A DNA stretch of 35,637 nucleotides, from positions 1-35,637 of the forward strand of contig CAMOCK010000217.1 in NCBI GenBank assembly GCA_946610645.1, given 5' to 3'. How positions within the stretch are numbered: the stretch's first letter is position 1; each line of letters begins with the position of its first letter. The notes under the pieces are model-generated. The model worked only from the letters and a program-made list of their open reading frames with translations, had not been told where the DNA came from and did not search any database. Shown here in pieces: positions 1 to 6,132 of the stretch. A program made the position numbers and the translations under genes. Origin of the DNA: an uncultured Bacteroidales bacterium. GTDB taxonomy: Bacteria > Bacteroidota > Bacteroidia > Bacteroidales > F082.

Positions 1-1
1 A

Positions 2-178
2 TGGGTCGTCAACGCCTCCGCCGACGCCACCGTGCAGGTGATTGACATGATGGGTCGCGTGGTTCTTAGTACAGACGTTGCGCGCAACGTCTCTACAAAG
101 GGAATGGCACCCGGTGTCTATGTGATGCGTTTGATCGACGGAAAGGATGTGAAGACGCAGAAGATCGTCGTCGATTGA
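2..178 (+). CDS. C-terminal fragment of a T9SS type A sorting-domain protein (5' end outside window)
   Basis: Frame 2 reads WVVNASADATVQVIDMMGRVVLSTDVARNVSTKGMAPGVYVMRLIDGKDVKTQKIVVD*, a typical T9SS type A C-terminal domain. It is nearly identical to the C-terminus of the 625..6108 ORF. Confidence 0.85.
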   Translation, partial: WVVNASADATVQVIDMMGRVVLSTDVARNVSTKGMAPGVYVMRLIDGKDVKTQKIVVD

Positions 179-187
179 TGGTCGGGT

Positions 188-624: not shown

Positions 625-3600
625 ATGAACAAAAAGACCTTACTATTCTTAATGGTGTTGGCCTTGGGCGCGCCTTGGGCGGCTTGGGGACAACAGGCAT
701 TGACCGTCAATGACGGGACCAAAACGAATACAATCATACCAATTTATGGCTATAATGCCAAGAATTACAATGTACAAAGCCAATTCATCATCCCTGCCAG
801 CGCATTGACTGATTTGGTAGGAATGGAAATTTCAAAAATCACTTTCCATACCGCTTCCTATTATCCATCAGTGACATGGCCGGATGCAGAGTTCAAAGTC
901 TATCTCCTCTCGACCGATAAGGAAAGCTTTTCATTCAACGATTACGTTAACTGGGAATCGTTGTCGAACATGGTGGTGTATAACGGTGTTTTGTCTGTGA
1001 ACAACAACGAGATGGACATCACGCTGACTTCACCTTATACTTATACGGGCAATAATCTGTTGGTGGCTTTCGAGGAAACGACGTTGGCTTCTTCGTCAAG
1101 CAGTGTAAGTTGGTTAGGAATCCAAACGAGTAATAATGCTGCGGTTTATCGCTTTGATTATAGTGGAAGCAGTTATTACATGCAGGAGCAATTCCTCCCC
1201 AAAATGACCTTCACCTATACAGACGGCTTCGTGTGCCCGATGCCCTACGGGATAAGCTGCACCGAAACCACCCTCACCTCAGCCACCCTCACTTGGACTG
1301 CCGGCGGCGAGGAAACCGAATGGCAATTGGTGTATTCCACCAATCCCGACTTCGACCCCGATGCGGCCACACCCATTGCGGTGACGCAACCCACCTACAC
1401 CCTTGGCATTGAACCCGACGTGACCTATTACGCCTACGTCCGTGCCAAGTGCGATGCCAGTCATTATAGCGACTGGAGCGGGCCGCGCAGCTTCGGCAGC
1501 GTGTTTGCTGCGCCCCACGACTTCTATCCAACCAACGTGACCGCCAACACGGCCACAGTCACCTGGACCAATGGCGACGACGAAACCTCATGGCAAATCG
1601 TGACCTCAACCACGCCCGACTTCAACCCCGACAACGCCTCGCCGACCAACGTGACCGAGAAACCCTTCACCCTGACCAACCTCACCGCCGAGCAGACCTA
1701 TTACGCCTACATCCGCGCCACGTCGGGCAACTACCACAGCGCATGGAGCAACGTTTGCTGCTTCACACCGACTAACGCCCGAAGCCTGACCGTGGGCGAG
1801 GGCGGCACCCGTGGCGACGTGCCCGTGCCGTTGGCCTATGCCAACCTCGGCAACACCAAGAGCGAGTTCATCATCCCCGCCGAGCGATTGACGGCGATGA
1901 AATACGGCACCATCACCCGCCTCACCTTCTACTGCGACGCACAAACGTGGATGGGCGCGGGCATCTGGGTCTATGTGGGCGAAACCGACCAAACCTCGCT
2001 CAACGCCGACAACCTGATTCCGGCCAGCGACATGACTTACGTCCACTACGGGAAAATGATCGTCGCCGACCAGCAGATGGTGGTCACGTTCAACAGAACG
2101 ACGCACCAGTACATGGGCGGCAACTTGGTGGTTTACTTCGAGCAATACAACGCAGGCGAAGCCAGCACAGGCCGCTGGTATGGCGTGCCTTCCGACAACC
2201 AAGCGATGTACTACGACGGCACCTCGAACCAATTTGTAGGTTTCATGCCCAAGACCACCATCAGCTACTTTGCCGGCTCATGCGCAGAGCCTGAATATTT
2301 GACTACAGAAAATGTCACCACCAACTCGGCCAACGTGGTTTGGACGGCTGGCGGCAGCGAAACCTCGTGGCTGCTGCAATACCGCGAAGCCAACGGCGAG
2401 TGGAGCGAGGCCGTTACGGTCAACGAAACGCCTTCCCATGTACTTAGCGGATTGACGGCTTCCACCACCTACGAAGTGAGGGTGAAAGCCGCCTGCTACG
2501 ACGACCTCCATAGCGACTGGACGGACGTTTACAGCTTCACCACTTGCGGCTCAGCGACCATCACCGCCGAAAACCCGTTTACGGAAGACTTCGACGGCGT
2601 GGAAGGCCAAATGCCCGATTGCTGGTCGGTGGCCAAAAGCAGTGAGAGCAACGTGGTGCGGATTAACGAAGATTGGCAATATGGGGGCGGGGAGCCAACC
2701 ATCTTGAAATACCTGAATTTCCATGTGTATGAATCGGATCATGCCACTACTGCCTACGCCGTTCTGCCCGAAATCACCAACATCAGCCAAACGCAGATGA
2801 AATTCAATGCCAGCGGCAACGCTTTCGCCGTCGGCGTGATGGAAAACGGTGTCTTCCATGAGGTGAAGGCTTTCGATGCCATGGAAAACACAGCTCCCTG
2901 CGTGGTTTATTTCGACCAATACACGGGCAACGGCACCAACATCGCCATTGGCCTCAATACGAGCGATTATGCCGAGTTGAATGTCGATGACGTGGAAGTG
3001 TCGCTGCTGCCCTCGTGTTTCGTGCCTTCCAGTTTGGAAGTGGTGGAGGCCGAAGAAAACGCCCTGACGCTGCAATGGTCGGCCTACGGCGACGAAACCG
3101 CTTGGCAGATGCAATACACCAACAACGGCACCGACTGGACCATGGTGGAGGTCAGCCAAACCGAGCTTGTCCAAGGGCAATACCGCCTGCAAGGTCTCTC
3201 GGCAAGCACGAACTACCAAGTCCGTTTGCGCGCCTCGTGCGGTGGCAACGACTTCAGCGACTGGACGCAGCCGATTGCGACCCAAACCTTGTGCGGGCTT
3301 TACACAGATGCATCCTATTTGGAGAACTTCGACGAAATCGTTTCCGAGCAATGGCAAGACGAAGAGCCCAACCTGCCTCTGTGCTGGCAATGGATCAATG
3401 CGTCGACGCACGAAAGCAACAAGCTTTTCCCGACCGTGTTTACCGTGAATCAATATGATAGCCAATACCAGTCGCCTTACAGCCTTTTGAAATTCCAAGT
3501 CAATGGCGACGTCAACAACTATGGCGAGGAAACCGTTTACGACCAATACGCCATCCTGCCCGAAATCGCCGACTTGGGGTCGAAGCAAATCAAGTTCTCG

Positions 3601-6108
3601 GCCCGTGCGGGCGAGTGGGGCTATCCGGTCAGTTTCGTCGTCGGCCTGATAACCGACCCGACCGATGCCACCACTTTCGCGCCCATACGCACCATGCAAA
3701 CCTCAGACATCGTGTATCACGACTTTACGGTCTATTTCGAGGAGAACCATTCGGGATATATCGCCTTCAAGTTGCCGGCAGTGGCCGAAACCCTCACCGT
3801 GCTTTACATTGAGGACATTGCCGTCACGCCCGCACCCGATTGCAAGATGCTGTTTGATTTCGCCTTGGTCGGGAACTCGATAACCGACGAATCCGCGACT
3901 TTGGATTGGACCCCCAACGGACACGAGACCCAATGGCAAATCCAATACCGCACCGACCGCGAAGATTGGACCACCGTGATTGCCGAGCAACACCCCTTCA
4001 CGCTCACGGGCTTGGAGGGCAACAATTACTACCATGTGCGAGTACGCGCCCGCTGCGGCGAAGACCAATACGGCGAGTGGTCGGATATGCTCAGCTTCAA
4101 CACCGATTGTCCAGAGTATCAGCCCATTCCGTACTATGAAGGCTTCGAGACTTGGACAGGCGACGAACTTGATGCACATGGCGACATGCTTCCATGCTGG
4201 TCGAAGTTGAGCACCTATACCGATGATTATGGCGGCACAGGTCCCTACGTTTTCTTGCTTGGAGGACACACTGGAGAGGGAGAATTGACCTTTGAAATGA
4301 GGCCCTCAAATGCCTGTCAGATGGCCATCTTGCCTGCCATCCAAAACCTGAAAGACATGCAAATCAGCTTCTATGCAAAAGGCCTGGAAGGCAGCAATTA
4401 TGTGGGCTATTTCTATTCCGACTTCGAAGTGGGCGTGATGACCGACCCAAACGATGCCTCAACCTACCAATTCATACAAAGCATCCATCCCGACGACGCC
4501 AATTACACGAAATACACGATTCCATTCAATACTTACACGGGCAATGGCAACTACATCGTCTTCAGGATGGTTGGCAATCCTTCCTTGAGAAGCCGTGCAT
4601 ATATTGACGACATTGTGGTCAGCGAAATCGTCAACTACACCAACGTTTTCACCTGCGAGAGCTACGACGGCGGCTATTGGAACGACCCAAGCTATTGGTC
4701 GGCGGCAACATTGCCCACGATGGACGACAACGTCACCATCAAAGGCAAGGCCATCATCCCAAGTGACTATGTGGCGGAGGCCAACATCGTTGAGTTTGGC
4801 GAAAATGGTTCGCTCCATGTCGAGAACAACGGCCAGCTGAAGCACAACAACATTGGAGTGGAGGCCACCTTCGCGAAAGCCATTGAAGGCTATGGCGAAT
4901 CGGTTCGTGGCGGATATTACCTCATTTCGTCGCCGATGGTGGGCAGCCTCGATGCCAAGACCAACCAATATTTCGGCACGGGCGACGTGCTCGGCCTGCT
5001 TGATGGCGAATACGACCTTTACCGCTTCAGCCAGTCCTACGACGAGGAATGGCGCAACTACAAGAAGGACCTCTTCACCATCGACATGAAGACGGGCTAC
5101 CTCTACGCCAACCGCGACGGCGTCACCCTGACCTATTCCGGCACGTTGCAGCCCAGCGGCAACGAAGTGGAAGTGACGCTTGAAAACGAAAGCACGGCCA
5201 CTTTCGACGGCTACAACCTGATTGGCAATCCGTTCCCATGCGATGCCTACCTTGCCGACGGACGGAGCTTCTACAGGCTCAATCCGGCGGGGACGAACCT
5301 GATGGAGGCCGAGGGATCCATTGCGCCATGCGAAGGCGTCTTTGTGCAATCCACGGCGCCGGGACAGACCGTTGCATTCACCAGAAACCAGCCTCGCAGC
5401 GAAGGCTCGATGGCGTTCACGCTGAGGAAGAGACAAACAGTTAGAGCCGGTGCTTCGACGGGCTCAGCGACCTCAACCTCAGCGACCTTGGATCGCGTCC
5501 GCATCCGCTTCGGAGAAGGCGACAACCTTGGCAAGCTCACGCTCATGGCCTCGTCCGACATGCTCTCAATCCCGCAAAACGGAACGGATTATGCCGTTGT
5601 CTTCAGCCAGCCCGTGGGCGAGCTGCCGCTCAACTTCGAGGCATCGGAAAACGGCACCTACACCCTCAGCTTCGAAAACGCCACCGAAGGCCTCGTCTAT
5701 TGCCACCTCATCGACAACCTCACTGGTGCCGATGTCGACCTCTTGACCCCGGCAGGCTTCCCCCTTTACAAAGGGGGTCAGGGGGATTCAAACGCACCCC
5801 GACAGGCAGAATACACCTTCACCGCCAAGAAGAGCGACTATGCCAGCCGCTTCCGCGTGGTGTTTGCTTCCGTTTGCGAGGACGCAGACGGCGACAGCGC
5901 GAGCAAATTCGCCTTCTACAACGGCAGCGCATGGGTCATCAATGCCTCAGCCGATGCCATCGTGCAGGTGATTGACATGATGGGTCGCGTGGTGGTTTCA
6001 ACCGACGTTGCGCACAACGTCTCTACAAAGGGCATAGCCCCTGGCGTGTATGTGATGCGCCTCATCGATGGCAACGACGTGAAGACGCAGAAGATCATCG
6101 TCGATTAA
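625..6108 (+). CDS. Large T9SS type A secreted protein with multiple fibronectin type III-like and choice-of-anchor-like modules
   Basis: Signal peptide MNKKTLLFLMVLALGAPWAAWGQ. About five FN3-like segments (e.g. LTWTAGGEETEWQLVYS...YYAYVRAKC). Three ENFD/EGFE...LPCW segments. C-terminal T9SS type A sorting domain. Confidence 0.9.
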   Translation: MNKKTLLFLMVLALGAPWAAWGQQALTVNDGTKTNTIIPIYGYNAKNYNVQSQFIIPASALTDLVGMEISKITFHTASYYPSVTWPDAEFKVYLLSTDKESFSFNDYVNWESLSNMVVYNGVLSVNNNEMDITLTSPYTYTGNNLLVAFEETTLASSSSSVSWLGIQTSNNAAVYRFDYSGSSYYMQEQFLPKMTFTYTDGFVCPMPYGISCTETTLTSATLTWTAGGEETEWQLVYSTNPDFDPDAATPIAVTQPTYTLGIEPDVTYYAYVRAKCDASHYSDWSGPRSFGSVFAAPHDFYPTNVTANTATVTWTNGDDETSWQIVTSTTPDFNPDNASPTNVTEKPFTLTNLTAEQTYYAYIRATSGNYHSAWSNVCCFTPTNARSLTVGEGGTRGDVPVPLAYANLGNTKSEFIIPAERLTAMKYGTITRLTFYCDAQTWMGAGIWVYVGETDQTSLNADNLIPASDMTYVHYGKMIVADQQMVVTFNRTTHQYMGGNLVVYFEQYNAGEASTGRWYGVPSDNQAMYYDGTSNQFVGFMPKTTISYFAGSCAEPEYLTTENVTTNSANVVWTAGGSETSWLLQYREANGEWSEAVTVNETPSHVLSGLTASTTYEVRVKAACYDDLHSDWTDVYSFTTCGSATITAENPFTEDFDGVEGQMPDCWSVAKSSESNVVRINEDWQYGGGEPTILKYLNFHVYESDHATTAYAVLPEITNISQTQMKFNASGNAFAVGVMENGVFHEVKAFDAMENTAPCVVYFDQYTGNGTNIAIGLNTSDYAELNVDDVEVSLLPSCFVPSSLEVVEAEENALTLQWSAYGDETAWQMQYTNNGTDWTMVEVSQTELVQGQYRLQGLSASTNYQVRLRASCGGNDFSDWTQPIATQTLCGLYTDASYLENFDEIVSEQWQDEEPNLPLCWQWINASTHESNKLFPTVFTVNQYDSQYQSPYSLLKFQVNGDVNNYGEETVYDQYAILPEIADLGSKQIKFSARAGEWGYPVSFVVGLITDPTDATTFAPIRTMQTSDIVYHDFTVYFEENHSGYIAFKLPAVAETLTVLYIEDIAVTPAPDCKMLFDFALVGNSITDESATLDWTPNGHETQWQIQYRTDREDWTTVIAEQHPFTLTGLEGNNYYHVRVRARCGEDQYGEWSDMLSFNTDCPEYQPIPYYEGFETWTGDELDAHGDMLPCWSKLSTYTDDYGGTGPYVFLLGGHTGEGELTFEMRPSNACQMAILPAIQNLKDMQISFYAKGLEGSNYVGYFYSDFEVGVMTDPNDASTYQFIQSIHPDDANYTKYTIPFNTYTGNGNYIVFRMVGNPSLRSRAYIDDIVVSEIVNYTNVFTCESYDGGYWNDPSYWSAATLPTMDDNVTIKGKAIIPSDYVAEANIVEFGENGSLHVENNGQLKHNNIGVEATFAKAIEGYGESVRGGYYLISSPMVGSLDAKTNQYFGTGDVLGLLDGEYDLYRFSQSYDEEWRNYKKDLFTIDMKTGYLYANRDGVTLTYSGTLQPSGNEVEVTLENESTATFDGYNLIGNPFPCDAYLADGRSFYRLNPAGTNLMEAEGSIAPCEGVFVQSTAPGQTVAFTRNQPRSEGSMAFTLRKRQTVRAGASTGSATSTSATLDRVRIRFGEGDNLGKLTLMASSDMLSIPQNGTDYAVVFSQPVGELPLNFEASENGTYTLSFENATEGLVYCHLIDNLTGADVDLLTPAGFPLYKGGQGDSNAPRQAEYTFTAKKSDYASRFRVVFASVCEDADGDSASKFAFYNGSAWVINASADAIVQVIDMMGRVVVSTDVAHNVSTKGIAPGVYVMRLIDGNDVKTQKIIVD
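5760..5777. repeat. Palindromic repeat CCCCCTTT-AC-AAAGGGGG inside the coding region
   Basis: Perfect 8-bp arms, followed by TCAGGGGGATT. Translated in frame as FPLYKGGQGDSN. Confidence 0.85.
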
Positions 6109-6132
6109 TTCCGGCATCCGCCGGTTTTCCCG

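What the first reader, a model, noticed from the sequence alone, without database searches (positions are those of the whole stretch)
5746..5807. Palindromic repeat CCCCCTTTACAAAGGGGG translated in frame inside the T9SS protein
The C-terminal module reads DLLTP-AGFPLYKGGQGDSNAPRQA-EYTFTAKKSDYASRF. The FPLYKGGQGDSN stretch is the translation of a perfect palindrome plus TCAGGGGGATT. It interrupts a segment that, in T9SS proteins of this type as I recall them, usually runs directly from DLL-P into the YTF strand. Near-identical 12-mers flank it (ACCCCGGCAGGC at 5746, ACCCCGACAGGC at 5796). This looks like a REP/MITE-type element captured as coding sequence. Caveat: the 50-nt spacing of the 12-mers is not a multiple of three, so a simple clean insertion with target duplication would not preserve frame.
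Basis: partly seen in the sequence, partly recalled or inferred. Interest (0 to 1): 0.6.

Follow-up and report, generated by a model that had tools for sequence, protein, structure and literature searches.

The report
Genomic repeat translated within protein loop
A short DNA repeat that normally sits between genes has been inserted, in frame, into an exposed loop of a secreted protein, and in this group of uncultured Bacteroidales the same loop (and loops of some housekeeping enzymes) has been filled again and again by several unrelated repeats.

Summary
CCCCCTTTACAAAGGGGG at 5760-5777 is a two-arm inverted repeat inside a 54-nt in-frame segment that the closest empty-loop paralogs of the T9SS-type protein lack. 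It is one of about ten copies in the genome, and 30 of 99 congeneric genomes have related copies, most of them outside long ORFs. The palindrome is only part of the unit: the full core is CCCCCTTTnnAAAGGGGG-(1-3 nt)-AGGGGGATT, the layout of known intrastrand-triplex motifs (PIT/TM). Its third strand covaries with the hairpin (AAA:ATT 81 copies, AGA:AGT 32). The flanking 12-mers are not target duplications; they are a module that also flanks many intergenic copies. In this genome the same loop holds the motif in 7 of 12 paralogs, an unrelated repeat (CTTCGACAGGCTCAG) in 1, and nothing in 4. Across the genus several repeat families occupy this loop, and PolA, SufS and IleS loops show the same thing. 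Best reading: insertion or exchange of a repeat that is open in its sense frames, tolerated at exposed loops, as described for Rickettsia RPEs and REP-decorated proteins. New variant of a known kind. Function of the inserts and the transfer mechanism are not shown.

The parts
625..6108 (+). Host gene: 1827-aa secreted multi-domain protein (fibronectin III repeats, choice-of-anchor J domain, T9SS type A sorting tail)
   Evidence: Pfam fn3 E=3.5e-33; NCBIfam choice_anch_J 2.1e-13; TIGR04183 9.4e-9 at residues 1773-1826
5746..5757 (+). Upstream flank module ACCCCGGCAGGC (read TPAG)
   Evidence: CCGGYAGGC-type module lies just upstream of 56 of 117 genus copies of the hairpin, intergenic ones included
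5760..5777 (+). Hairpin CCCCCTTT-AC-AAAGGGGG (read PLYKG)
   Evidence: exact; 11 places in genome at <=2 mismatches, control 0
5778..5788 (+). Spacer TCA plus third strand GGGGGATT of the triplex-type motif
   Evidence: third strand covaries with the hairpin: AAA:ATT 81, AGA:AGT 32 copies
5796..5807 (+). Downstream flank module ACCCCGACAGGC (read in another frame, PRQA)
   Evidence: found downstream of 30 of 117 copies, both modules in 25
5746..5799 (+). Extent of the net 54-nt in-frame insertion relative to empty-loop paralogs (ends uncertain by a few nt because of local similarity)
   Evidence: DNA alignment with L147 and L148
5450..5490 (+). Second dispersed repeat read in frame in the same protein: CTTCGACGGGCTCAG (ASTGSAT) in another variable loop
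   Evidence: 12 places of CTTCGACRGGCTCAG in the genome, control 0; same loop varies among paralogs
6003..6032 (+). GACGTTGCGCACAACGTC-type inverted repeat read as DVAHNVST in the sorting tail; possibly a third captured repeat, not established
   Evidence: sequence; similar palindrome at 65-100

Best explanation
The segment is a copy of a dispersed DNA repeat of the intrastrand-triplex type (hairpin plus a mirror third strand), together with its usual flank modules, sitting in frame in a surface loop between two beta strands of a secreted protein. The core of this subfamily has no stop codon in any of its three sense frames, so it can be inserted in any phase if the net length is a multiple of three; insertions elsewhere or out of frame are presumed removed by selection. 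The loop is permissive, and in this genus it has been filled independently by unrelated repeats. Once present, a filled loop probably spreads or is exchanged between the many paralogs by gene conversion through the conserved strands on either side. Shown: multi-copy repeat, in-frame 54-nt insertion, empty and filled paralogs, different repeats in the same loop, hairpin/third-strand covariation. Inferred: insertion mechanism, gene conversion, neutrality, triplex folding in the cell.
For: Copy number and control. Seven of 12 own-genome paralog loops hold this motif, 1 the CTTCGAC repeat, 4 are empty. 54-nt insertion against L147/L148. Of 60 genus loops 20 are empty and 40 filled by several repeat families. 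The TM label needs at least 8 changes on strongly supported branches. L154 and L182 share nearly identical flanks but carry different repeats. The same motif lies in frame in IleS, PolA and SufS loops that are short or otherwise filled in sister species. All three sense frames open; internal ORF copies are 36 sense to 4 antisense. Insert is coil, pLDDT below 50 at 206-214, between strands. Covariation Fisher p=8e-22, not corrected for relatedness of copies.
Against: No transposase, target duplication or donor copy identified. Some paralogs may have inherited the filled loop through gene duplication, so insertion events are fewer than copies. Translation of the insert is inferred from the open frame; no expression data. 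The genomes are mostly metagenome assemblies. The 62-nt segment does not fold more stably than its shuffles as single-stranded DNA (z=-0.38), though triplex pairing is not modelled by that program.
Confidence: 0.85

Rival explanations
1. One ancestral insertion, then spread purely by gene duplication of the T9SS family; later loss gave empty loops.
For: The motif label is clustered on the paralog tree (10 changes against a shuffled mean of 16.4); several close paralogs share near-identical inserts.
Against: At least 8 label changes on well supported branches; unrelated repeats in the same loop; the same motif in IleS, PolA, SufS and other unrelated genes.
Confidence: 0.08
2. Loop cassettes are exchanged as an adaptive diversification system for surface proteins, the repeats being used as interchangeable loop sequences.
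For: Swap of one repeat for another between nearly identical flanks (L154/L182); several variable loops in one domain hold repeats.
Against: Cytosolic enzymes (IleS, PolA, SufS) show the same, which suggests plain tolerance; no selection test done.
Confidence: 0.12
3. REP element mobilised by a REP-associated tyrosine transposase (RAYT).
For: Y1_Tnp genes are present in most relatives and one in this genome.
Against: No copy of the motif near nine Y1_Tnp loci examined; genomes rich in the motif can have a single weak Y1_Tnp hit (G000, G022).
Confidence: 0.07
4. The peptide is ordinary conserved protein sequence and the palindrome a coincidence.
For: The DLL...YTF frame around it is conserved.
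Against: The motif is dispersed and mostly outside long ORFs (72 of 127 copies), translated in different frames in different genes, and missing from 20 of 60 loops.
Confidence: 0.01

Closest known systems
Intrastrand triplex motifs (PIT / TM, Holder et al. 2015, PMC4666352)
   Same: Pyrimidine strand, short loop, purine strand, about 3-nt loop, second purine strand; G.G-C, A.A-T and T.A-T triads; dispersed, many copies, many phyla
   Different: Sequence differs from the E. coli consensus CCCTCNCCC...; the E. coli motif was reported always intergenic, here it is also translated inside genes
Rickettsia palindromic elements (RPE; reviewed in PMC2229807)
   Same: Palindromic repeat found between genes and in frame inside conserved protein genes, tolerated
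   Different: RPEs are 105-146 bp, Rickettsia-specific and unrelated in sequence; here the core is about 30 nt and one loop receives several unrelated repeats
REP-decorated proteins (GTAG/CGTC REPs, PMC3733652)
   Same: Short hairpins, often encoding 20-30 aa as dimers, inside genes, including PolA and tRNA synthetases in other bacteria
   Different: No GTAG/CGTC tag in the window copy, no nearby RAYT seen; the passages of that paper that were read do not describe this motif or T9SS proteins

Membership tests
Intrastrand triplex motif (TM/PIT), general class | Order Y strand - loop - R strand - loop - R strand with 8 or more triads | tested here: met
   CCCCCTTT-AC-AAAGGGGG-TCA-GGGGGATT, 8 triads by sequence
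Intrastrand triplex motif (TM/PIT), general class | Third strand matches the purine strand position by position | tested here: met
   AAA:ATT 81 and AGA:AGT 32 of 124 copies; the neighbouring positions hardly vary, so one position carries the covariation
Intrastrand triplex motif (TM/PIT), general class | Folds as a triplex in vitro | not testable with these tools
   needs CD/NMR
TM-ECO subfamily | Consensus CCCTCNCCCN3-6GGGNGAGGGN3GGGNGAGGG and intergenic location | tested here: not met
   different letters; window copy is inside a gene
Rickettsia palindromic elements | 105-146 bp element of Rickettsia | tested here: not met
   54-nt insertion in Bacteroidales
Rickettsia palindromic elements | In-frame presence in conserved protein genes | tested here: met
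   IleS, PolA, SufS, T9SS proteins
REP with RAYT | GTAG or CGTC tag at the hairpin foot | tested here: not met
   window copy lacks both; the flank module of many intergenic copies (GCGTCCGGTAGGC) contains these letters but not directly at the stem
REP with RAYT | Copies flank a Y1 transposase gene | tested here: not met
   none within about 1 kb of nine Y1_Tnp loci; not exhaustive
MITE | Target-site duplication at the insertion | tested here: not met
   12-mers recur with intergenic copies; no duplication apparent against empty loops L147/L148

The most novel reading that the evidence does not exclude
In this Bacteroidales group exposed protein loops act as exchangeable sockets: unrelated short repeats are inserted and swapped in frame at fixed loop positions by an active DNA process (for example triplex-induced breakage plus conversion among paralogs), generating loop diversity in secreted and housekeeping proteins.
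Probability: 0.2. Interest if true: 0.82.

Novelty: new variant of a known kind. Interest (0 to 1): 0.62.

Why it matters
In-frame palindromic repeats were known mainly from Rickettsia and REP-rich proteobacteria. Here a triplex-type repeat, whose E. coli counterpart was reported as purely intergenic, is read as protein in an uncultured Bacteroidales group, together with several other repeats at the same loop positions. The group gives many paired empty, filled and swapped loops, so the question of how non-coding repeats become protein sequence can be tested directly. It also warns that peptides such as KGGQGDS, STGSAT or VPRND in such proteins are probably repeat-derived and should not be taken as functional motifs.

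Tried and rejected
Target-site duplication: rejected. RAYT link: examined nine loci, none found. The two CTTCGAC repeats next to the genome's Y1_Tnp gene on C207 turned out to be inside an upstream T9SS gene, so they are not evidence of a REP-transposase unit. RNA family search gave nothing above the gathering score. DNA fold of the 62-nt segment is not unusually stable. Literature search for the CTTCGAC repeat by its letters found no paper. PDB fold search gave only weak matches, among them T9SS C-terminal domains. One alignment call failed on coordinates.

Full report
Observation. The finding's coordinates are correct and the motif does not occur by chance: 0 expected in the window at 2 mismatches, 11 places in the 2.44-Mb genome against 0 for the reversed control pattern. 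BLAST of the 76-nt segment finds it at several unlinked loci and in a tandem array of about 68-nt units at the end of contig C95 and the start of C91. The array has no ORF of 200 aa. The host ORF encodes an 1827-aa secreted protein with fibronectin III repeats, a choice-of-anchor J domain and a T9SS sorting tail.

The repeat. Copies from 99 congeneric genomes (30 with a match at E<=0.01) show that the palindrome is part of a longer unit: CCCCCTTTnnAAAGGGGG, a 1-3 nt spacer, then AGGGGGATT. Read as a folded strand, GGGGGATT lies antiparallel to AAAGGGGG, which gives G.G-C, A.A-T and T.A-T triads, the layout of the intrastrand triplex motifs of Holder et al. (PMC4666352). A second subfamily supports this: where the hairpin has TCT/AGA the tail is AGT, where it has TTT/AAA it is ATT (81 and 32 of 124 copies; Fisher p=8e-22, which ignores relatedness). 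This holds with different flanks and with spacers of 2-3 or of 12-14 nt. Only one position varies enough to test, so this is two subfamilies obeying the triplex rule rather than many independent changes. The exact core also occurs in many other phyla (the scan stopped at its limit, so frequencies cannot be compared). In 396 genomes spread over the phylum only 8, the window's own included, hold the exact 18-mer.

Flanks. The two 12-mers are not a target duplication. A CCGGYAGGC-type module stands upstream of 56 of 117 copies and a CCCCGGCAGGC module downstream of 30, both in 25, many of them intergenic. The window holds the whole composite.

Empty and filled loops. In the window's genome 12 paralogs could be read at this loop: 7 hold the motif, 1 the unrelated CTTCGACAGGCTCAG repeat, 4 are empty. 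Among 60 loops of the genus 20 are empty (DLLxxPxYTF) and 40 filled, by this motif (19), by CTTCGAC repeats in various frames (14; read as STGSAT, LRQAQGP, PELVEG), by a DVARNVST-type sequence (3) and by others (4). The labels were assigned by peptide patterns. Against the closest empty paralogs (L147, L148) the window carries exactly 54 extra nucleotides, so the frame is kept. On a tree of the domain without the loop, the motif label changes at least 8 times on strongly supported branches (quick method). L154 and L182 have almost identical DNA on both sides, yet one holds a CGSSPAMT-type repeat and the other the CTTCGAC repeat: a replacement at one place.

Other genes. The motif is in frame in isoleucyl-tRNA synthetase (one species; sister species have other loop sequence), in the linker of DNA polymerase I, in cysteine desulfurase SufS, in a TPR protein and in an O-antigen-ligase-like membrane protein. 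These names come from reading the translated sequences and were not run against family libraries. The SufS loop is a short form (29-residue motif) in some species and is filled in others by this motif in either orientation, by CFVPRNDAKR-type or by NSQLSTLNSQLS-type sequence.

Why it can be translated. The TTT/AAA core is open in all three sense frames and has stops in two of three reverse frames; the TCT/AGA core has a stop in one sense frame. Internal ORF copies are 36 sense and 4 antisense; 72 of 127 copies lie in no ORF of 200 aa, far more than the small intergenic share of a typical bacterial genome, which fits removal from most coding positions. ORF length stood in for annotation.

Structure. 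AlphaFold2 on the C-terminal 322 residues with 40 relatives (mean pLDDT 82.6) places the insert (fragment residues 203-223) entirely in coil between strands 198-200 and 224-229, with pLDDT below 50 at 206-214. Fold search gave weak matches only, several to T9SS C-terminal domains.

Mechanism. Shown: a dispersed repeat, in-frame insertion, empty, filled and swapped loops, unrelated repeats at the same positions. Inferred: selection leaves only in-frame insertions in tolerant loops, and conversion among paralogs spreads and swaps filled loops. How a first copy enters is open; no transposase is tied to it. Triplex motifs have been linked to local instability in E. coli (PMC4666352), which could promote insertion or replacement; this is a lead, not a test.

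Known context. In-frame palindromic repeats are known as Rickettsia palindromic elements (PMC2229807) and as REP-decorated proteins, including PolA and tRNA synthetases elsewhere (PMC3733652). The kind is therefore known. What differs is the triplex-type repeat, the Bacteroidales T9SS host, and the repeated filling of one loop by unrelated repeats. The literature library holds only open-licence papers, so earlier reports may have been missed.

Noticed in passing
window 5450-5490: CTTCGACGGGCTCAG repeat read in frame as ASTGSAT in another variable loop of the same protein; 12 places of the repeat in the genome, several inside T9SS-type proteins.
   Followed up: partly
window 1-179 and 5931-6109: 85% identical stretches: the start of the window looks like the 3' end of a neighbouring paralogous T9SS gene, so the host gene probably sits next to a tandem paralog.
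   Followed up: no
window 65-100 and 6003-6032: GACGTTGCGC..GCAACGTC-type inverted repeats, read as DVAxNVST in sorting tails; possibly another captured repeat family.
   Followed up: no
G000 contig C95 10441-10862 and C91 1-107: Tandem array of about 68-nt units, each holding the motif plus flank modules; it runs off the contig ends and probably broke the assembly.
   Followed up: partly
L140 736-777: The motif lies between an acetyltransferase-like part and a DUF559-like part of one ORF (read by eye), which may be a repeat-mediated gene fusion.
   Followed up: no
L154 and L182: Loops with nearly identical flanking DNA but different repeats: a clean repeat-for-repeat replacement.
   Followed up: yes
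Genome-contig hits L284-L402: The roughly 29-nt core is found exactly in many bacterial phyla, with no explanation yet for its spread.
   Followed up: partly
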